Notes under the pieces: model-generated
Databases searched by the model: none
Told to the model about the DNA's origin: nothing
The model's input: only the letters and a program-made list of their open reading frames with translations
Virus record (IMG/VR): IMGVR_UViG_3300042390_000894
Location: 1-20,877 of that record
Source: a virus
Strand: one strand, 5' to 3'
Length of the DNA: 20,877 nt
Program-made: the position numbers and the translations under genes
In this document: piece after piece, positions 10,048 through 17,159 of the stretch
How the letters are laid out: each line of letters begins with the position of its first letter
Numbering within the stretch: position 1 is the stretch's first letter

Positions 10048-10075
10048 GGCGGTATTCAAATAATTGAGTGCCGTT

Positions 10076-10717
10076 ATGAAACTATGTAAAAAATGTGGCG
10101 AGGTCAGGGAGTTAGCACAGTTTGTCAGAAACAAAAATAAGTCTGATGGTCTTCATACTGTTTGTAAGCCCTGCACCAAAATATACAAAGCTAAATATTA
10201 CGAGGACAACAAGACTGAAATTCTTCAGGAATTTCGTGAGCGGTATCAGGACAACCCTGAGAAATACCGAGAAGCAGAAAATAAACGCAGACAATCCAAC
10301 CCAGAGGCCTACAACCAAAAGGCTTTAACCTATCAAAAGCAGAACAAGGAAAAGGTGAATAAGCGGCATAGAGAGTGGGAAGGATCTCAGCGCAAAGAAA
10401 ACACTCAATTCAAAATGAGAGCATTTGTAAGACAAAACCTCAACAATGCCCTTAAGAGAAATAGCGTGAATTGTATTGCGGCCAATCACTTGGGTTGCTC
10501 GATAGCTTTCTATAAAGATTATTTATCTAAAAAGTTCAAAGATGGAATGAGCTGGGAAAATAGGGGTTGTCTTTGGTCTGTAGATCATATTGTCCCGCTG
10601 TCAGCCTTTGACTTAACCGATACTGATCAGCTTGCAAAAGCTTGTCATTACACTAATACGCAGCCTCTTTATATTGTTGAAAATAACAAAAAAGGAGGTG
10701 CAAACAGAGGAACTTAA
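10076..10717 (+). CDS. Free-standing HNH endonuclease (homing type)
   Basis: This is a 213-residue HNH nuclease with an N-terminal zinc-finger-like C4-C7...C30-C33 (KLCKKCGEV, HTVCKPC), a long Lys/Glu/Arg-rich helical linker, and a C-terminal HNH core. The core includes the lead-in HLGCSIAFYKDYL, GMSWENRG, DHIVPL at residues 170-175 (H171 as general base), and N194 and N203/K205 in NTQPLYIVENNKK. Such genes cut DNA at a target site and copy themselves into phages that lack them; they have no structural role. It lies between sheath and tube genes that are normally adjacent. I chose the ATG at 10076 (GAGTG 5 nt upstream); a TTG at 10064 is also possible. Its last codons carry the ribosome site of the tail tube gene, so insertion did not disrupt the downstream gene. 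Confidence 0.85.
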   Translation: MKLCKKCGEVRELAQFVRNKNKSDGLHTVCKPCTKIYKAKYYEDNKTEILQEFRERYQDNPEKYREAENKRRQSNPEAYNQKALTYQKQNKEKVNKRHREWEGSQRKENTQFKMRAFVRQNLNNALKRNSVNCIAANHLGCSIAFYKDYLSKKFKDGMSWENRGCLWSVDHIVPLSAFDLTDTDQLAKACHYTNTQPLYIVENNKKGGANRGT

Positions 10718-11881: not shown

Positions 11882-14101
11882 ATGGCTCAAGCAGGTGTGA
11901 TTCGTGACTTCATGGTCGCATTAGGATTTAAAACTGATAATTCAGGTTTAGGCAAAATGCAAGATGCCATGAAGGGAGTAGAGCTTAAGGCTCAAGCATT
12001 GAATGGTGCATTAATGGCTTTAGCGACAGCAGCTGTTATAGCTGTTCGTCAAACAGCCAGTGAACTGGATAAGCTTTATTTTTCATCTCAGCGTATTGGT
12101 GCTAGCGTTACCAATATTAATGCCTACGGTAATGCTATTGCTCAAATGGGCGGTAGTGCGGAAGGTGCTATAGGTTCGCTTGAATCCTTAGCTGAAAAGA
12201 TGCGTAATTCTCCCGGCTATGAGGGAATGATCAATAGCCTCGGTGTACAAACCAAAGATGCGAATGGCGCAATGCGTGACCGTGTTGAAGTCATGAAGGA
12301 TCTAAGTGGTGTCTTGTCTAAGATGCCTGCGCACCAAGCCAATGCTTATGCCAATTCACTTGGTATTGATCAGAACACTTTGCTTGCAATGCGTGACGGC
12401 AAGTTTGTATCTAACATGGATAAATACCAGAAGATACAAAAAGAATTAGGTATGAATGACGACCTTGCTAAATCAGGCAATCAGTTTATGTCTGAATACC
12501 GTGATTTAACCATGATGACAAAGACTGGTTTTCAGGTCATTGTGATGCAGGCAGGTAAGGCTTTAATCCCAATTCTTAAGCTACTTAACACTTTAATCAT
12601 GGCGGGTATCTCTGCATTTAGTCAGTTGAACCCACAGATTAAAGAAGGCTTAGGGGTTGTATTGCGTTTTGGTATGGCTGCCCTTGTACTGGGTGCATTC
12701 ATTAAAACATTTGGGATGATTTTTAAGTTCATACCAATGTTGAAAGGATTTATCGGGCTACTTAAGTTATTTAGACTTGCTTTCCTTGCGTCACCGATTG
12801 GCATCATTCTGGCTTTAGCATCAGCCTTATATTTGCTATATGACGACTACAAAACATGGAAAGAAGGCGGTAAGTCGCTCTTTGACTGGTCTAAGTGGAC
12901 CAATGGTATCGATAAGATCATCGGGAAGATTAAAGACTTCTTGGCTATGTTGGATAAGATTAAAGACAAGGTAATTAACTTTGTTCAAAAGATCATCTCT
13001 GATCCCATTGCCGCCGTTCAAGATGTTGTTGAAGTTGCTAAGGATGCTGCTAAAAATGCGATAGATGAAGTCACAAAACCAACTACTGAGCCTACAAATG
13101 ATACGGTTAAAGCCGTGAATCAGGTCAGTAAGACCATTGTAGATAGCGTTAAAGAAACTACCAAGAAAGCTGTAGAGGTTGCAGTGGGTGTGGCTAAGGC
13201 TGTGCAGGGTGAGGTTAAGGGGGCGGTGGTTCAGTCAACCTCTGAAATACATACCGAGCTAGGTCGGGTGTCAGCTAAATATGAAGGGAAGATAGGAAGT
13301 GCAAACAAAGATATAGATCAAAATGGAAATCCAGCAGGTTGGGCTTATGGTAAATTCCAGTTTAATAGTGCAAAAGGTGGGCTTGATAAATTTATGTCAG
13401 ATAATCCCGAGATAAAAAAACACTTCAAAGGATTAACACCCGGAACCAATGCATTCAATAAAAAATGGAAAGAGTTAGCAAGGCTTGATCCCGTAAATTT
13501 CGAGAAAGCACAGAACAAAAGTGCCGCCAATTTATGGTATGCACCTGCTAAAAAGGCTTATGCAAAAGCAGGATTTGATCTTAAAAGCCGAGGTGTTCAA
13601 GAGGCTGTATTTAGTAGTTCAATTCAACATGGTGGGGTTGTTAGAAAATTACTCCCATTAATTCAAAAAATGGCAGAGAAGGATATTAAAGATCTAACAA
13701 CTCAGGAACAGATTAAATTGATCTATAAAGCAAGAACTAAATATCATGCAAACGGGAAGAAGCGATATGATAGTGAAGTAAGGGATGCTTTAAAGTTAAG
13801 CAATAGTCGAGATGGTAAAATCCCCACACCTCAAAATAGTAAGGATTTGGCTAATTTCGCTCAAGGTGCTGATATGCCACACATTCAGTCTTATGCACCA
13901 CCAAGTGGAAACCCACACAGAGGGCAGGTTAATAGCTCCAACATGTCTGCTTCAAATGTTACGATTCACCAGTCATTTAAAACTGATATGACGATTAATG
14001 GCGCTAGAGAACCAATTGAGTCAGCGAATGCGGTAAAACGCCATCAAGAAAATCAGTTAGCGTTTATGGCGAGAGGCGCAATGAATCCGCTTGCGGGTTA
14101 A
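11882..14101 (+). CDS. Tape measure protein with internal lysozyme-like domain
   Basis: This is the longest gene (739 residues). The product fixes tail length and leaves with the DNA during infection. Residues 1-240 are Ala/Gly-rich helices of the usual tape measure type (FMVALGFKTDNSGLGKMQ). Residues about 260-325 are strongly hydrophobic (ALVLGAFIKTFGMIF, ASPIGIILALASALYLL), probably for inner-membrane passage, followed by a coiled, Lys/Val-rich part to about 440. Residues about 455-640 look like a peptidoglycan-degrading domain: SAKYEGKIGS with candidate catalytic E468, GWAYGKFQFN, GVQEAVFSSSIQHGG, and LTTQEQIKLIYKARTKYH. Similar modules occur in tail-tip and VgrG-linked lysozymes. The last 100 residues are polar. 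Its stop shares the palindrome TTAA with the stop of the reverse-strand gene that follows. Confidence 0.85.
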   Translation: MAQAGVIRDFMVALGFKTDNSGLGKMQDAMKGVELKAQALNGALMALATAAVIAVRQTASELDKLYFSSQRIGASVTNINAYGNAIAQMGGSAEGAIGSLESLAEKMRNSPGYEGMINSLGVQTKDANGAMRDRVEVMKDLSGVLSKMPAHQANAYANSLGIDQNTLLAMRDGKFVSNMDKYQKIQKELGMNDDLAKSGNQFMSEYRDLTMMTKTGFQVIVMQAGKALIPILKLLNTLIMAGISAFSQLNPQIKEGLGVVLRFGMAALVLGAFIKTFGMIFKFIPMLKGFIGLLKLFRLAFLASPIGIILALASALYLLYDDYKTWKEGGKSLFDWSKWTNGIDKIIGKIKDFLAMLDKIKDKVINFVQKIISDPIAAVQDVVEVAKDAAKNAIDEVTKPTTEPTNDTVKAVNQVSKTIVDSVKETTKKAVEVAVGVAKAVQGEVKGAVVQSTSEIHTELGRVSAKYEGKIGSANKDIDQNGNPAGWAYGKFQFNSAKGGLDKFMSDNPEIKKHFKGLTPGTNAFNKKWKELARLDPVNFEKAQNKSAANLWYAPAKKAYAKAGFDLKSRGVQEAVFSSSIQHGGVVRKLLPLIQKMAEKDIKDLTTQEQIKLIYKARTKYHANGKKRYDSEVRDALKLSNSRDGKIPTPQNSKDLANFAQGADMPHIQSYAPPSGNPHRGQVNSSNMSASNVTIHQSFKTDMTINGAREPIESANAVKRHQENQLAFMARGAMNPLAG

Positions 14102-14451
14102 TAGCTCAATCTCTCATGCAACTCTTTTTCACGCGAAGTGGATTTGTTTATTAGGCATGAGAGTTGGTTAGAGGTGAATCCTGTTCTATCATCTACTCTA
14201 CTGGCATCATAGAAGCAATCAGCCTCTTTATATTGCACCCAGAGGCGTTGAGCTTTTATGAGTTGCTGCTTTGTTTCGGGAGGGGTTGTTTTTAGGTTTT
14301 CTTGATAAGTAGCCAGTAATCGTTTGTCTGCAGCATCAAGTTTACTTTGTAGGCATTCTCTTTTATCTGTAGCTGAATCTATATCAAGGCAATCCGCCCA
14401 AGCCCCTACACTTAAAATCGATGCAATTACGAGAAGTAGTAGTTTTTTCAT
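14098..14451 (-). CDS. Secreted LprI-family lysozyme-inhibitor-like protein
   Basis: This is the only reverse-strand gene I accept. It encodes 117 residues with a clear signal peptide (MKKLLLLVIASILSVGAWA, cleavage likely after AWA at 19) and a mature part of about 98 residues with four cysteines (C21, C33, C79, C99), enough for two disulfides. The pattern TDKRECLQSKLDAADKRL, LIKAQRLWVQYKEADC and a C-terminal CL...TSREKELHERL fits the LprI/DUF1311 family, some members of which inhibit lysozyme. It sits in the opposite direction inside a late operon, as phage morons often do, and probably has its own promoter in 14452-14574. A periplasmic protein that blocks muralytic enzymes could act in lysogenic conversion or in exclusion of related phages; that role is inferred. 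Confidence 0.75.
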   Translation of the reverse strand: MKKLLLLVIASILSVGAWADCLDIDSATDKRECLQSKLDAADKRLLATYQENLKTTPPETKQQLIKAQRLWVQYKEADCFYDASRVDDRTGFTSNQLSCLINKSTSREKELHERLSY

Positions 14452-14493
14452 TCGTCTTTTGCTCTTAATGTGGTTTTAACTTTGCGCGTAAAA

Positions 14494-14515
14494 TTTACAC
14501 AAATTTATGTGTAAA
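14494..14515. promoter_or_regulatory. Perfect inverted repeat in divergent intergenic region, candidate operator
   Basis: TTTACACA (14494-14501) and TGTGTAAA (14508-14515) are exact inverted repeats with a 6-nt AT spacer. The dyad lies between the divergent LprI-like gene and the TPR-like gene. A weak + strand promoter, TTTACA (14494-14499) and CATAAA (14518-14523) 18 nt apart, overlaps it. The site could bind a dimeric regulator controlling one or both genes. Confidence 0.45.
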
Positions 14516-14574
14516 AGCATAAAAGTGATATCATGTACAGTGAACCATGTTTTTACTTGATTTGAGATATATCG

Positions 14575-15321
14575 ATGATAGCACCAATCCCTAAAACCAA
14601 AGCAGAAGAAATATTTGCAGAGCTTGCGAATACTATATCTAGCCAAGAGAAGATTTCGGATTTCAGGCTTTCTAAATATTTACAGGAAATTTCAAACCTA
14701 AGAAAAACAGGGGTTGACTTGGGTATGCTATGGATGTGCGAAGGCTATATTTATAGCCTCAAAAATCAACCCAAAGAAATGAAATCGGCTTTCAAAAATG
14801 CGATCCATTTTGGAATGCACGATAACATCTCAAGATACAATCAAGCAGCAAAATATTTAATATTTGGATATTTTGATGAGGCAGCAGAGGGGTTTGCGCT
14901 TTCATATGATGAGGATGCTCAGAGCAATCTCATTAGAATCGCAATGGCAACTTTTGATTTTGACAAAGTTGGAAGTTTGCTTGTGCATCAAAAATATAAA
15001 GATAAGCTCCTTCAAAGAAAGGAAGTTTTAATAAATCGCGGTTATGATGTGTATAAGATTAAGGAAATATTAGATATCCTTCACAACATAATTAGAAAAA
15101 AAAATATATGTTTTTCTATGGTTAGACAGGATTTTGGTATTCATGATGATGAGGGCTTATCATTTTATATTGAATTAGATGCTGATAATTTAGATATAAT
15201 TAAATTAATATTAAATGAATATGATGATATTACCAGTACAGAAGATTTGTTTGAAACAGCTTCAAAGTTAACAATAATTCTGCTCCCATTTACCTCAATT
15301 GAATATCAGATGGTTATATAA
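14575..15321 (+). CDS. TPR-like protein of unknown function, first gene of an accessory pair
   Basis: I do not recognise a named family for this 248-residue protein. Residues about 50-120 look like two TPR-type helical hairpins (LWMCEGYIYSLKNQPKEMKSAF; YNQAAKYLIFGYFDEAAEGFAL). The C-terminal part (about 185-240) reads as an alternating strand-helix domain: FYIELDADNLDIIKLIL, then SKLTIILLPF. No signal peptide or membrane segment is evident. The DNA is much more AT-rich than the flanking tail genes; for example, bases 15181-15240 contain only 11 G or C. The gene starts at ATG 14575 with a weak GAG site and its TAA is directly followed by the ATG of the HEPN-like gene. This suggests one transcript and coupled products, such as a toxin with its partner or a two-protein defence unit. 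Confidence 0.6.
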   Translation: MIAPIPKTKAEEIFAELANTISSQEKISDFRLSKYLQEISNLRKTGVDLGMLWMCEGYIYSLKNQPKEMKSAFKNAIHFGMHDNISRYNQAAKYLIFGYFDEAAEGFALSYDEDAQSNLIRIAMATFDFDKVGSLLVHQKYKDKLLQRKEVLINRGYDVYKIKEILDILHNIIRKKNICFSMVRQDFGIHDDEGLSFYIELDADNLDIIKLILNEYDDITSTEDLFETASKLTIILLPFTSIEYQMVI

Positions 15322-15735
15322 ATGGGAAAATTCAAGCCACAGCACCGTTTAGATTACATTAAGGAAATAAATGCTTTAAATATAGAAAGTGAATGCCACT
15401 TAAGAAGTGTTATTCACCAGTCTTATTACGCAGCATTAAATCAATTAAAGTATGAAATTGATAATCGATTATTTTTTCCAATGGATGAAAAAGATCGACA
15501 TGAAAGATCGCATCAAGCCGTTATTGATGCTTGTGAAAACCAAATTAGAAAATTACCTTCTACTGATAAAGCACGAAGGCAGTTACTAACCAAGGTGTCA
15601 AATAACATGAAAAGGGCGAGAAAATTAAGAGTAGATGCTGATTATAGGTTTGATATTGAAATTGTATCAGCCCATGCTAATGTAGCCACAGATTACGCAA
15701 ATCAGATTTTTAATAATCTAGAAGATTACCAGTAA
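15322..15735 (+). CDS. HEPN-like domain protein, second gene of an accessory pair
   Basis: This is a 137-residue, all-helical, charged protein. The phrase LRSVIHQSYYAALNQLKYEI (28-47) and the later RARKLRVDADYRFD (98-111) match the usual HEPN layout, in which a helix with a YYAA core is paired with a helix ending in an R-x-ADY motif. R59-H60-E61-R62-S63-H64 forms an R-x4-H with a polar second residue, as in catalytic HEPN ribonucleases, although its placement before the R..ADY helix is not the classical one. HEPN proteins act as RNases or nucleotide-transfer targets in toxin-antitoxin and abortive-infection systems. The gene abuts the TPR-like gene with no spacer and ends before a UUCG-type terminator, so the two form a closed unit. 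The HEPN assignment is by pattern and needs a profile search. Confidence 0.55.
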   Translation: MGKFKPQHRLDYIKEINALNIESECHLRSVIHQSYYAALNQLKYEIDNRLFFPMDEKDRHERSHQAVIDACENQIRKLPSTDKARRQLLTKVSNNMKRARKLRVDADYRFDIEIVSAHANVATDYANQIFNNLEDYQ

Positions 15736-15753
15736 TATTAAATAAGTCTTCAC

Positions 15754-15776
15754 AACCACCTTCGGGTGGTTTTTTT
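15754..15776 (+). terminator. Rho-independent terminator with TTCG tetraloop
   Basis: AACCACC (15754-15760), loop TTCG (15761-15764) and GGTGGTT (15765-15771) form a very stable hairpin followed by T to 15776. It ends the TPR/HEPN-like unit and separates it from the next module. Confidence 0.85.
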
Positions 15777-15797
15777 ACACCCAAGGAAAATCGCGCT

Positions 15798-15905
15798 GTG
15801 CAAAATACAAACAAGCTTATGCATTGGGGAATAATTACTGTTATAATTATATCGTACGATATAGATTATCGGAAAGGATGGTATTTCATATGTCAAAAGT
15901 TGTAA
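15798..15905 (+). pseudogene. Short hydrophobic reading frame, possible gene remnant
   Basis: A GTG at 15798 with a good AAGGAAAA ribosome site 8 nt upstream opens a 35-codon frame whose start reads MQNTNKLMHWGIITVIIIS, like the N-terminus of a small membrane protein. It then runs through the promoter and palindrome of the next module. It has the same terminator-T-run-AAGGAAAA arrangement that precedes real late genes at 5640 and 16533. It may be the stub of a late gene cut by insertion of the toxin-antitoxin-like module, or a chance frame. Confidence 0.25.
15839..15863 (+). promoter_or_regulatory. Extended -10 promoter abutting a 16-bp perfect palindrome (operator)
   Basis: TGTTATAAT (15839-15847) is a perfect extended -10 element (TGn plus TATAAT). 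Directly after it, 15848-15863 is a perfect palindrome of two 8-bp halves, TATATCGT and ACGATATA, which would overlap the transcription start. No convincing -35 is present, as expected for an extended -10. The start of the antitoxin-like gene is 26 nt downstream. The layout is typical of an autorepressed toxin-antitoxin promoter. Confidence 0.7.
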
Positions 15906-16111
15906 GAGCGAGAACAATGGATCGAGCAATGAGTTTTGTTGCATCTAGCACTTCAGTTCGTTTTTTACAGACATCTCAGCCTACAGGTGCGGTGCAATAT
16001 TTTGATATTGATCATTTATCTAGATTAGCTCAAGAAGAATCATATACAATGCCGCGAGGTTTAACCCGTGAGCAAAGAAGAGAATGGGCGAGAAAGAATC
16101 AGCAAAAATAG
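15890..16111 (+). CDS. Putative antitoxin-like small protein
   Basis: This is a 73-residue protein with an amphipathic, Arg-rich ending (GLTREQRREWARKNQQK) and a short N-terminal part (MSKVVRARTMDRAMSFVASS). I do not recognise its family. The ATG at 15890 is preferred: AAGGA lies about 12 nt upstream, and an in-frame ATG at 15878 overlaps that site. The gene lies just after a strong extended -10 promoter and palindrome, and overlaps the following gene by 28 nt in another frame, the usual layout of an antitoxin followed by its toxin. The likely job is to bind the partner toxin and the palindrome. Evidence is contextual. Confidence 0.55.
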   Translation: MSKVVRARTMDRAMSFVASSTSVRFLQTSQPTGAVQYFDIDHLSRLAQEESYTMPRGLTREQRREWARKNQQK

Positions 16112-16500
16112 AATATCAAGTAGCTTTTGGGAAAACATTTAATAAATATTATAGTCAATCATACCCAAAATCCACTTTAGATTTGATTGATGATTTTATT
16201 GATCATTACGAAGAGCATGGTTTAAGGGGGTGGAAAGGAAAAATTTCTCCTTCAAATCGGGTTCCTGAAAATTATGAAAATCGAAGCGAATTGATAGCTA
16301 AAGCTGATAAACATAATCTCTGGCATGTTCATATTGGTGATCCGAAATGGAATCCTACTCCTCATGGACAATACCTAACATCTGATTGGGTATTGCAATT
16401 TAAGAGGGTAAACAATTATAAAATTGTTTTATTGGAGCTCGGTTGGCATAACCCTTTGCTACTACCAAGCGATGATATATGTGAAGAAGAAACCGCCTAA
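16084..16500 (+). CDS. Putative type II toxin, YafO/RelE-like
   Basis: This 138-residue protein shows a pattern I associate with YafO-type toxins, RelE-superfamily mRNA interferases that cut mRNA on the ribosome. The core is NLWHVHIGDPKWNP (78-91), then QYLTSDWVLQFKRV (96-109) and IVLLELGWHNPLLLPSD (114-130); H81, H83, D101 and H122 are candidate active-site residues. The N-terminal half is a helical segment (TLDLIDDFIDHYEEHGLRGWKG). The ATG at 16084 gives a 28-nt overlap with the antitoxin-like gene. Its last two codons and stop form part of the terminator hairpin, so the gene is sealed off from the downstream baseplate genes. A maintenance (addiction) or abortive-infection role is inferred. 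Confidence 0.6.
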   Translation: MGEKESAKIEYQVAFGKTFNKYYSQSYPKSTLDLIDDFIDHYEEHGLRGWKGKISPSNRVPENYENRSELIAKADKHNLWHVHIGDPKWNPTPHGQYLTSDWVLQFKRVNNYKIVLLELGWHNPLLLPSDDICEEETA

Positions 16501-16512
16501 GGCGGTTTTTTT
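16491..16512 (+). terminator. Rho-independent terminator with the toxin stop codon as loop
   Basis: AACCGCC (16491-16497) and GGCGGTT (16501-16507) flank the loop TAA (16498-16500), which is the toxin-like gene's stop codon. A run of seven T reaches 16512. The Dit-like gene ATG follows 20 nt later with TAGGAAAA as ribosome site. Confidence 0.85.
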
Positions 16513-16532: not shown

Positions 16533-17159
16533 ATGGCAATAAGTTCCCTAATCAATTCAGCTATTGCATCACCCTTAACGGAAAAAGCCGGATCTCTTTT
16601 GTTAGCTGGCAAAGGTCGAACAATCATGGGGCTTTTTGCTGATGTGACGATTGAAGAAAAACACGATGATGAAATTGAAATAACTGAGCATCCAACCGAT
16701 GTGGGATCACCAATGCATGATCATGCATATAAAACCCCACCAAAACTTTCAATGAAACTCGGATGGTCAGAGAGCGCAGGTCGATTGAATGGGATGGTGG
16801 GTGATTCAATTTTGTCTGAAACAACTGGTTTGATTGCGGTGTATGAAACATTGCAGTTGCTACAAGAGAATTATGTAAGGCTGATTATTTCAACCGGTAA
16901 ACGCTTATATACCAACATGCTCATTAAGTCATTGAGCTGCACCACTGATAAGGCAACAGAAAATGTGCTGATGATCGATATAACTTTTAAGAAAGTTTTT
17001 ATTGTTAAAACTGCCGAAACAACAGTATTGGTTGAAAATCAAGCCTCACCTGAATCAACTGCTCAGGTGAAGGATGGTGGAACTGTGCAGAAGGTGGAAG
17101 TGAATGAGTCGAAGCTAAGTAAAACTGGTGGCTTTATAAGTGATGTTCTGGGGTTTTAA
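16533..17159 (+). CDS. Dit-like baseplate protein
   Basis: This 208-residue baseplate component is first in the baseplate block. The segment GKGRTIMGLFADVTIEEKHDDEIEITEHPTDVGSPMHDHAYKTPPKLSMKLGWS (about residues 26-79) is typical of the Dit-like N-terminal domain of contractile-tail phages, with the conserved EHP..G..I-.DH phrase. The product forms a ring joining the last tube disk to the hub. TAGGAAAA precedes the ATG by 7 nt. The C-terminal 45 residues are polar and low in hydrophobics. Under the normal gene order it would follow the tape measure gene directly; here the accessory island intervenes. Confidence 0.78.
   Translation: MAISSLINSAIASPLTEKAGSLLLAGKGRTIMGLFADVTIEEKHDDEIEITEHPTDVGSPMHDHAYKTPPKLSMKLGWSESAGRLNGMVGDSILSETTGLIAVYETLQLLQENYVRLIISTGKRLYTNMLIKSLSCTTDKATENVLMIDITFKKVFIVKTAETTVLVENQASPESTAQVKDGGTVQKVEVNESKLSKTGGFISDVLGF

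What the first reader, a model, noticed from the sequence alone, without database searches (positions are those of the whole stretch)
14098..16512. Accessory (moron) island inserted between tape measure and Dit-like genes
Between two genes normally adjacent in contractile-tail phages lie five non-structural genes: a reverse-strand secreted protein, a TPR/HEPN-like pair and a toxin-antitoxin-like pair. Two of the three modules are closed by their own terminators, and each has its own candidate promoter or dyad. Base composition in the TPR/HEPN part is far lower in GC than in the flanks. This placement in the tail region suggests a variable hotspot that could carry anti-phage or host-modifying genes and be expressed from the prophage.
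Basis: partly seen in the sequence, partly recalled or inferred. Interest (0 to 1): 0.75.

Follow-up and report, generated by a model that had tools for sequence, protein, structure and literature searches.

The report
Swappable tail-lysozyme and inhibitor cassette
In this family of Acinetobacter-type phages, the stretch behind the tail-length gene is a real hotspot for extra genes, and its first gene is most likely a matched blocker of the wall-cutting enzyme carried by the phage's own tail, while the genes behind it look like optional defence cargo.

Summary
The hotspot is real: 100 loci with both genes give 64 distinct tape-measure (TMP) to Dit intervals, from 41-82 bp without a gene to over 3 kb (six have a mis-called left border). 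In 4 of 4 other-genus phages opened, the two genes abut. But the island is not all random cargo. The TMP's C-terminal lytic domain is swapped between phages, and the kind of its neighbour (LprI family in the window) is swapped with it. For minus-strand neighbours, pairs sharing the lytic domain on diverged backbones share the neighbour's kind in 46 of 58 cases, against 2 of 32 for near-identical backbones with different lytic domains. The TMP C-terminus lying between the two does not covary. In the window the lytic domain is VgrG3-like and the LprI model resembles the immunity protein solved with that enzyme. I infer a cognate tail-lysozyme/immunity pair that works like T4 Spackle, probably for superinfection exclusion. 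The TPR-HEPN pair is a mobile prophage module (HEPN fold supported). The last pair is toxin-antitoxin-like by anatomy only. Inhibition, exclusion and lysogenic expression are untested.

The parts
11882..14101 (+). Tape measure protein, 739 aa. N-terminal half conserved; residues about 460-640 are a VgrG3-like peptidoglycan hydrolase domain that is swapped between relatives; last ~75 residues partly conserved again
   Evidence: Pfam T6SS_VgrG3-like_C E 2.7e-28 at residues 460-624; phmmer to the VgrG chain 4noo_A E 1e-11; identity to the window 0.63-0.79 in residues 1-240, about 0.1 in 511-660, 0.67 at 691-720
14098..14451 (-). LprI-family protein with signal-peptide-like leader (by eye), inferred cognate inhibitor (immunity protein) of the TMP lytic domain
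   Evidence: PF07007 E 5.7e-14; model pLDDT 86.6 matches DUF1311 entry 3gi7 (Z 12.8) and the immunity chains 4noo_B/4nso_B (Z 10.7/10.5); covariation
14451..14490 (-). Possible 3' scar of a zinc-ribbon-like membrane gene that sits here in relatives (reads ...KVKTTLRAKDE, then a stop overlapping the LprI ATG)
   Evidence: translation; 27 of 54 nt identical to the same tail in L078 and L039, reached by 1 and 5 of 2000 shuffles; the other 12 of 14 tails are not above chance in the register tested
14575..15321 (+). TPR-like partner (sensor or antitoxin candidate) of the HEPN gene
   Evidence: phrog_17809 E 3.4e-4; no Pfam match above cut-off; relative in L108 has TPR_2 E 2.7e-4, below cut-off; a 232-285-aa gene precedes HEPN in 11 of 11 genome loci opened, judged by size and place
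15322..15735 (+). HEPN-fold protein, candidate RNase effector
   Evidence: phrog_5176 E 5e-14; model pLDDT 91.3; 2hsb Z 13.7, rmsd 2.8, 116 aligned; HEPN-MNT toxin entries Z 8.5-10.5
15754..15776 (+). Terminator-like hairpin and T run closing the TPR-HEPN module
15890..16111 (+). Small ORF, candidate antitoxin, overlapping the next ORF by 28 nt (one search lists a longer TTG start at 15824)
   Evidence: phrog_18801 E 5.5e-12; same pair in L004, L029, L070 and L216
16084..16500 (+). 138-aa protein, candidate toxin; 99% identical copy in L004
   Evidence: phrog_5954 E 1.6e-15; alignment A5; no Pfam or NCBIfam match
16491..16512 (+). Terminator-like hairpin AACCGCC-TAA-GGCGGTT + T run; the stop codon of the 138-aa ORF lies in the loop
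   Evidence: read from sequence; not listed by the scanner
16533..17159 (+). Dit-like tail protein, right border of the hotspot
   Evidence: PF21821 E 9.4e-29

Best explanation
The interval between the tape measure and Dit genes is a cargo hotspot of this Acinetobacter-type phage lineage, built in two layers. Layer 1 is a matched pair. The TMP carries one of at least six alternative domains in the same place, four of them recognisable as peptidoglycan hydrolases, and the gene directly behind it (on the opposite strand in 40 of 54 loci) encodes a small, apparently exported protein that I infer to be the specific periplasmic inhibitor of that domain. In the window these are a VgrG3-like muramidase and an LprI-family helical protein. 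Made in an infected or lysogenic cell, the inhibitor would stop the tail lysozyme of an arriving phage of the same type (superinfection exclusion, as T4 Spackle does) and might also protect the producing cell from its own TMP lysozyme. Some phages carry an extra inhibitor-like gene of a kind otherwise tied to another lytic type, which would widen the exclusion. Layer 2 is loosely held cargo between the inhibitor and Dit: here a TPR-HEPN pair (inferred abortive-infection or TA-like RNase module) and a two-gene toxin-antitoxin-like pair. Shown: the hotspot, the domain swapping, the covariation, the families and predicted folds. Inferred: export, inhibition, exclusion, and expression in the lysogen.
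For: Hotspot: 64 distinct intervals among 100 loci; TMP and Dit abut in 4 of 4 other-genus phages opened. Domain swap: identity to the window 0.63-0.79, then about 0.1, then 0.67; representatives match SLT (just below cut-off), Hydrolase_2 and Phage_lysozyme2; the window's matches VgrG3-like_C. Covariation: 36 loci, lytic domain vs mature first gene r = 0.447, 0 of 3000 shuffles; 26 minus-strand loci r = 0.612, 0 of 3000; TMP N-term -0.006/-0.071, TMP C-term 0.066/0.008, leader -0.029/-0.086, second gene 0.087/0.039, Dit -0.014/-0.119. Partial on backbone 0.448, 0 of 5000. 32 minus-strand loci: r = 0.71, 0 of 3000, vs 0.017 (906 of 3000) for the intervening TMP C-term DNA. Same lytic, diverged backbone: 46 of 58 pairs (shuffles mean 11.1, at most 21 in 1000); different lytic, near-identical backbone: 2 of 32; nearest locus by lytic domain has the same kind in 23 of 31, by backbone 8 of 31, shuffles mean 6.0, at most 16. 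Window: nearest by lytic domain and by LprI is L078 (0.72 and 0.80; next best 0.07 and 0.22), while its closest backbones L012, L004 and L002 (0.94, 0.94, 0.93) have other lytic types and other first genes. Structure: LprI model to 4noo_B Z 10.7, rmsd 2.4, 90 aligned. Extra genes: in 7 of 7 typed loci the classifiable extra inhibitor-like gene is of a kind tied to another lytic type. Literature: Spackle inhibits the T4 tail lysozyme (abstracts and passages, PMC7677548, PMC7650644); an LprI-domain protein is the proposed immunity protein of a T6SS wall-degrading effector (passages, PMC8867033).
Against: No biochemistry. The window's lytic type has only one other member here (L078). Pairs of loci are not independent. 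Several first genes break the rule: L003 (Hydrolase_2 type with the SH3-like kind), L073 (type 3 with the Hydrolase_2 kind), and the 149/150-aa kind in L012, L043, L113 and L121, found with three lytic types. With plus-strand first genes included, same lytic/diverged backbone gives the same kind in only 92 of 154 pairs, though different lytic/near-identical backbone stays at 2 of 157. Under the strictest filter, which discards pairs alike in both genes, nearest-by-lytic gives the same kind in 10 of 35 against 5 of 35 by backbone. Foldseek gives no match with E at or below 0.001 for the LprI model, and helical bundles can reach Z of about 13 without kinship (note). No profile-level similarity to Spackle beyond the leader (prob 28%). 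L010 (59 bp), L048 and L127 (82 and 41 bp) have no inhibitor gene in the interval, so it is not essential. Three of the alternative TMP domains have no recognised enzyme family.
Confidence: 0.72

Rival explanations
1. Linkage only: the lytic domain and the first gene lie within about 0.7 kb and are exchanged together by recombination without functional matching.
For: They are neighbours, and conserved TMP segments could serve as crossover points.
Against: The TMP C-terminus lies between them and does not covary with the lytic domain (r 0.066 and 0.008 in protein; 0.017 in DNA). The leader of the same first gene and the gene after it do not covary either. Linkage predicts the opposite order.
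Confidence: 0.13
2. The inhibitor serves the producing cell (self-protection from the phage's own TMP lysozyme, cis) rather than exclusion of arriving phages.
For: Overexpression of T4 gp5 lyses cells (abstract passage of PMC7650644); Xanthomonas T4SS immunity proteins act mainly in cis (abstract and passages, PMC10933484).
Against: The gene is opposite to the late genes in 40 of 54 loci; extra inhibitor-like genes of kinds tied to other lytic types (7 of 7 typed loci) would be useless for self-protection, though they may be scars of earlier swaps.
Confidence: 0.3
3. LprI is an ordinary host-fitness moron that blocks lysozymes of animals or of competing bacteria.
For: LprI of M. [quoted passage not shown] distant matches to the window LprI occur in 45 of 175 Acinetobacter genomes, most of them not examined further, so such proteins also exist outside this island.
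Against: Does not predict covariation with the TMP lytic domain.
Confidence: 0.1
4. For the second module: the TPR-HEPN pair is a toxin-antitoxin-like or abortive-infection system of the prophage, possibly triggered by tail proteins.
For: HEPN fold; a partner-sized gene directly upstream in 11 of 11 genome loci opened; beside a tape measure gene (phrog_1506) in L202, L206 and L207 and a few genes behind one in L067; Tha is a tail-activated HEPN system of S. aureus prophages (abstract and passages, PMC11087260).
Against: The R-x4-H motif of the window is absent from the 7 other aligned members; only weak PADLOC matches; in L201, L205, L209 and L211 no tape measure was noticed next to the pair; position beside tail genes may only reflect where prophages tolerate insertions.
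Confidence: 0.55

Closest known systems
T4 Spackle (gp61.3) and tail lysozyme gp5
   Same: Small exported phage protein that neutralises the tail-borne lysozyme in the periplasm, giving superinfection exclusion
   Different: No sequence kinship shown (profile comparison prob 28%, mostly the leader); T4 is lytic and sp is not beside gene 5 (recalled); here the pair is adjacent and swapped together, and the enzyme sits in the tape measure
T6SS VgrG3-TsiV3 effector-immunity pair of Vibrio cholerae
   Same: Window TMP domain is VgrG3-like; the LprI model superposes on the partner chains of the same solved complexes (4noo_B, 4nso_B, and 4nsr 'Immunity protein'; Z 9.2-10.7; that these chains are TsiV3 is recalled); genes adjacent
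   Different: Carried by a phage tail, not a secretion system; inhibitor gene on the opposite strand; the LprI profile does not list those chains at E up to 1
LprI-domain immunity proteins of T6SS peptidoglycan hydrolases (proposed, Salmonella Dublin SPI-19)
   Same: PF07007 protein with signal peptide beside a peptidoglycan-hydrolase gene (PMC8867033, passages)
   Different: Bacterial secretion locus; there the pairing is predicted from one locus
Tha (tail-activated HEPN anti-phage system of S. aureus prophages)
   Same: Prophage-encoded HEPN protein linked to tail biology
   Different: Tha-1 is one 301-aa protein with a functional R-x4-H motif and an antisense inhibitor gene (PMC11087260, abstract and passages); here two genes, motif not conserved, trigger unknown
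Anti-phage hotspots of P2-like phages and P4-like satellites
   Same: A site in the phage genome with exchangeable defence-like cargo (PMC9122126, abstract and passages)
   Different: Different phages and site; here one cargo layer is tied to the neighbouring structural gene

Membership tests
LprI / DUF1311 (PF07007) | Match above the Pfam gathering score | tested here: met
   52.8 bits against cut-off 22
LprI / DUF1311 (PF07007) | Fold of the solved DUF1311 protein 3gi7 | tested here: met
   Z 12.8, rmsd 1.9, 91 aligned; profile match E 3.1e-6
LprI / DUF1311 (PF07007) | Lysozyme inhibition | not testable with these tools
   needs purified protein
Spackle (PF25676) | Sequence homology to T4 Spackle | tested here: not met
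   No match for the window protein; profile comparison prob 28%, mainly the leader; one relative (L021) E 0.009, below cut-off
Spackle (PF25676) | Spackle fold | tested here: inconclusive
   The rows shown (50 of 128, 50 entries) list no Spackle entry, which proves nothing
VgrG3-like muramidase (PF21277) | Domain match in the window TMP | tested here: met
   99.7 bits against cut-off 27, E 2.7e-28; 4noo_A E 1e-11
TsiV3-type immunity protein | Fold similarity and location beside a VgrG3-like domain | tested here: inconclusive
   Z 9.2-10.7, but helical bundles can score so without kinship; adjacency shown
HEPN superfamily | HEPN fold | tested here: met
   2hsb Z 13.7; 12 of the top 24 titles name HEPN and two more the MntA-HepT pair; profile match to HEPN entry 9xbd E 1.3e-5
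HEPN superfamily | Conserved R-x4-6-H RNase motif | tested here: not met
   R59-x4-H64 in the window only; invariant in all 8 are E24, R28, Y35, Y36, D55, H64, R103, D107, Y108
Type II toxin-antitoxin pair (15890-16500) | Match to a known TA family | tested here: not met
   No match above cut-off in Pfam, NCBIfam or PADLOC; comparison with YafO prob 0.1%
Type II toxin-antitoxin pair (15890-16500) | Small upstream gene overlapping the larger one and travelling with it | tested here: inconclusive
   Pair kept in window, L004, L029, L070 and L216; in 9 of the 10 loci the upstream motif searched for was not seen, but in 8 of those the motif of the larger protein was not seen either, so that test was insensitive
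Tha | Single protein with C-terminal HEPN and R-x4-H | tested here: not met
   Two separate genes; motif not conserved

The most novel reading that the evidence does not exclude
Tape measure proteins of temperate phages carry polymorphic wall-degrading warheads, each with a cognate immunity gene next door, and prophages collect extra immunity genes against other types. The post-tape-measure hotspot would then be a kin-recognition locus: which prophage a cell carries decides which tail-lysozyme types can still breach its wall, much as T6SS effector-immunity sets decide which neighbours kill which.
Probability: 0.5. Interest if true: 0.8.

Novelty: new variant of a known kind. Interest (0 to 1): 0.66.

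Why it matters
If right, it explains a class of uncharacterised exported phage proteins as matched inhibitors of tail-borne lysozymes, carries the effector-immunity logic of secretion systems over to phage tails, and gives a sequence-based prediction of which Acinetobacter prophages exclude which phages. It also shows that a hotspot read as random cargo has one functionally coupled layer and one free layer.

Tried and rejected
YafO membership of the 138-aa protein: suggested by eye, rejected by profile comparison (prob 0.1%). Spackle homology of LprI: a weak Pfam match in one relative prompted the test; not supported. More copies of the window lytic type: none in 175 Acinetobacter genomes at E 1e-5, in a search with no known positive among them; 70 phage records hold distant relatives, all below 60% identity and none from Acinetobacter phages, neighbours not examined. 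LprI of the window kind: one partial match in phages; none confirmed in viral contigs, a search that also missed L078 and so is not exhaustive. TPR protein by tblastn in phages and plasmids: no match; in viral contigs none confirmed. HEPN protein in phages by tblastn: no match. Promoters: fewer than in shuffles. Rfam: no match in the window. In one search single linkage lumps the window and L078 with the Hydrolase_2 type; direct scores separate them, and I use those. Type 2 holds two types (L017/L021 apart from L005/L014), separated. One search prints nearest-neighbour counts 'of 32', but one locus (L081) had no backbone overlap and was skipped; one search gives the right denominator, 31.

Literature: ten searches listed no paper that I recognised as describing a TMP-linked LprI inhibitor or this hotspot; only open-access PMC text is held and I judged most papers by the listing. 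PMC6193963 (A. baumannii prophages) and PMC3978071 (A. baumannii prophage induction): passages for chosen terms only. PMC9927483: passages. PMC3857813: abstract and headings. PMC12135965: one passage in its reference list, not used. PMC7933661: listing only, not used.

Rows dropped: of 126 loci with a Dit match 26 had no usable TMP ORF in the stretch held; the other 100 (some of them the same contig fetched twice) gave 64 distinct intervals. Six of the 64 have a wrong left border: L090, L108, L109, L119 (gap over 3.5 kb, TMP split or mis-called), L034 and L123. The four were left out, leaving 60; L034, L046, L048, L077, L123 and L127 lacked a typed domain or a first gene, leaving 54; 36, 26, 40, 32 and 31 are subsets after redundancy or strand filters. 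The 36-locus filter removes pairs alike in both genes and so works against the association. Extra inhibitor-like genes that fit no kind (for instance a 164-aa gene in L009 and a 117-aa LprI-like gene in L081) were not counted; L113 and L121 carry nearly the same first gene. Loci came after the interval analysis and were not added.

Full report
What the window is. The window is a 20,877-base virus record. Dit-like, Pam3 gp18-like plug and E217 gp41-like hub proteins follow the tape measure. All 6 phage records found by DNA similarity are Acinetobacter phages, and all 11 loci from the named genome collection are Acinetobacter; more distant Dit relatives occur in phages of many other genera (66 records).

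The observation. The first, 14098-14451 on the minus strand, is an LprI-family (PF07007) protein with a leader that looks like a signal peptide. The next two are a TPR-like and a HEPN-like gene, and the last two overlap by 28 nt. GC of the TPR and HEPN genes is 0.319 and 0.326 and of the 138-aa gene 0.348, against 0.39-0.45 for the other 12 genes measured. One terminator is found by the scanner and a second is plain to the eye. The claim of separate promoters is not better than chance.

The hotspot. I collected loci with the Dit protein from viral contigs, genomes and phage records. Of 126 loci with a Dit match, 100 had both genes and fell into 64 distinct intervals, six of them with a mis-called left border. 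The interval ranges from 41 bp (L127) and 82 bp (L048) to 3,450 bp (L031) among those with sound borders; L010 has 59 bp. Cargo includes exported-looking proteins, a HicA toxin with a DUF1902 partner, a DUF4760 protein and a protein weakly like Exo_endo_phos with a partner gene. In 4 of 4 phages of other genera that I opened TMP and Dit abut, so occupation of this site may be peculiar to the Acinetobacter lineage. The window's five-gene set was seen in no other locus; the last pair is almost identical in L004, whose first gene and lytic domain differ.

The tape measure is itself modular. Across 60 aligned sequences taken as TMP (two of them, L034 and L123, mis-called), identity to the window is 0.63-0.79 in residues 1-240, falls to about 0.1 in 511-660 and returns to 0.67 at 691-720. 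Six representatives of the variable part were scanned: one matches SLT just below cut-off, one Hydrolase_2, one Phage_lysozyme2, and three nothing above cut-off. The window's own is T6SS_VgrG3-like_C and aligns with the solved VgrG chain 4noo_A at E 1e-11.

The first gene follows the lytic domain. On 54 typed loci, reduced to 36, similarity of lytic domains correlates with similarity of the mature first-gene products (r 0.447; 0 of 3000 shuffles), and more strongly for the 26 with a minus-strand first gene (0.612; 0 of 3000). The other segments do not: TMP N-terminus -0.006 and -0.071, TMP C-terminus 0.066 and 0.008, leader of the same first gene -0.029 and -0.086, second gene 0.087 and 0.039, Dit -0.014 and -0.119. 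Controlling for backbone leaves 0.448, 0 of 5000. With a lighter redundancy filter (32 minus-strand loci) r is 0.71 (0 of 3000) against 0.017 (906 of 3000) for the DNA of the TMP C-terminus, which lies between the two genes. In plain counts, pairs with the same lytic domain on diverged backbones (TMP 1-380 identity below 0.75) share the kind of first gene in 46 of 58 cases, where shuffles give 11.1 on average and at most 21 in 1000; pairs with near-identical backbones (0.9 or more) and different lytic domains do so in 2 of 32. The classes between: same lytic 13 of 22 (0.75-0.9) and 8 of 9 (0.9 or more); different lytic 8 of 188 (below 0.75) and 2 of 140 (0.75-0.9). With plus-strand genes included, 92 of 154 and 2 of 157. 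Nearest locus by lytic domain predicts the kind in 23 of 31 loci, by backbone in 8 of 31; shuffles gave 6.0 on average and at most 16. Under the strictest filter, which removes pairs alike in both genes, the figures are 10 of 35 against 5 of 35. Because the segment between them and the leader beyond do not covary, co-inheritance by linkage alone is a poor explanation.

The window itself. Its closest backbones are L012, L004 and L002 (0.94, 0.94, 0.93 identity over TMP 1-380), and these have other lytic domains and other first genes. The only locus with its lytic type is L078 (score 0.72; next 0.07), and that locus also has by far the closest LprI (0.80; next 0.22). The LprI model (pLDDT 86.6) has three long helices. 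Its best solved matches are the DUF1311 entry 3gi7 (Z 12.8), an uncharacterised Burkholderia protein 6ar7 (Z 10.8), which the LprI profile also finds by sequence, and then 4noo_B (Z 10.7, rmsd 2.4, 90 aligned), 4nso_B (10.5) and 4nsr_B (9.2). The titles of these three speak of self-protection against the V. cholerae T6SS, an effector-immunity complex and an immunity protein; chain A of the first is the VgrG protein found with the TMP domain. That the B chains are TsiV3, the immunity protein of VgrG3, is recalled. Z values for a helical bundle are not conclusive alone, but the partner of that immunity protein belongs to the same enzyme family as the window's TMP domain.

How it probably works. 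T4 Spackle is an exported phage protein that binds and inhibits the tail lysozyme gp5 and so excludes superinfecting phages (abstracts and passages of PMC7677548 and PMC7650644). LprI-domain proteins have been proposed as immunity proteins of T6SS wall-degrading effectors (passages of PMC8867033), and V. cholerae vgrG-3 carries an internal promoter for tsiV3, so that immunity can be made without the weapon (abstract and section heading of PMC3857813). I infer that the first gene is the cognate inhibitor of the TMP domain, and that its opposite orientation allows expression apart from the late genes. In 7 of 7 typed loci with a classifiable further inhibitor-like gene, that gene is of a kind tied to another lytic type (L020, L031, L078, L081, L113, L114, L121). 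This fits either exclusion of other phage types or scars of earlier swaps. Protection of the producing cell remains a real rival (PMC10933484, abstract and passages).

Exceptions. L003 and L073 carry a first gene of the kind usual for another lytic type, and the 149/150-aa kind occurs with three types (L012, L043, L113, L121). So some first genes are not, or no longer, matched.

The TPR-HEPN pair. The HEPN model (pLDDT 91.3) matches HEPN entries best (2hsb Z 13.7, rmsd 2.8, 116 aligned; HEPN-MNT toxin entries Z 8.5-10.5). Invariant residues in eight sequences include H64, R103, D107 and Y108, but the R-x4-H motif of the window is not conserved. The HEPN profile matches 14 of 175 Acinetobacter genomes. 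Three of these matches lie next to a Dit gene of the present family (compare: G076, G006, G150; the G006 copy carries stop codons). I opened the other 11, and a 232-285-aa gene precedes HEPN in each. The pair lies beside a tape measure gene in other prophage types too: directly after it in L206 and L207, directly before it in L202, and a few genes behind one in L067 (all four long ORFs match tape measure family phrog_1506). In the present hotspot a HEPN gene with a TPR-like or other ~150-265-aa partner occurs in the window, L031 (two), L073, L090, L108 and its relatives, L113 and L122. A defence role is inference by analogy with Tha (PMC11087260, abstract and passages).

The last pair. It matches only PHROG families of unknown function. 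The two genes travel together in five loci. Calling it toxin-antitoxin rests on anatomy alone.

A scar. Reading upstream of the LprI start gives KVKTTLRAKDE and a stop overlapping the LprI ATG, like the tail of the zinc-ribbon-like gene that precedes the first gene in relatives. DNA identity is 27 of 54 with L078 and L039 (1 and 5 of 2000 shuffles reach it), but not above chance with the other 12 of 14 tails in the register tested. It suggests that the free cargo replaced a zinc-ribbon-like gene.

Noticed in passing
L206 3313-3741, L207 6769-7161, L202 6654-7121, L067 5998-6405 (HEPN genes): TPR-HEPN pairs beside, or a few genes behind, tape measure genes of another family (phrog_1506), so the association with tape measures is wider than this lineage.
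   Followed up: partly
L021 7564-8936, L039 7544-8940, L121 7528-8921: A recurrent two-gene cargo: a ~300-aa protein (L021 copy weakly like Exo_endo_phos families, below cut-off) followed by a 149-164-aa gene of no known family; another candidate defence or toxin pair.
   Followed up: partly
L002, L004, L008, L029, L033, L036, L041, L070, L074, L078 and others: gene directly upstream of the first minus-strand gene: A zinc-ribbon-like protein (just below Pfam cut-off in L036) with a membrane-like segment and a conserved tail, in an operon-like arrangement with the first gene whatever the lytic type; function unknown.
   Followed up: partly
window 14490-14515: Dyad TTTACACATAAATTTGTGTAAA in the divergent gap between LprI and the TPR gene; possible operator, not seen upstream of the first gene in other loci.
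   Followed up: partly
window 10064-10717: Endonuclease VII-like ORF (phrog_1035 E 1.4e-16) between two tail genes upstream of the tape measure; possibly a homing-type insertion.
   Followed up: no
L085, L088, L117, L011, L124 (first plus-strand gene): Exported-looking 109-130-aa proteins, most with a GGGAGG motif, next to one SLT-type TMP group and as second gene in Hydrolase_2-type loci; possibly an unrecognised lysozyme-inhibitor family (the L085 copy has no Pfam match).
   Followed up: partly
L046 5724-7203: A transposase-like gene (by eye) beside a truncated first gene of the 149/150-aa kind in the same hotspot.
   Followed up: no
L019 8352-8945, L040 8324-8950: HicA toxin with a DUF1902 partner in L019, and a similar-looking pair in L040 (by eye), as cargo at the same site.
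   Followed up: partly
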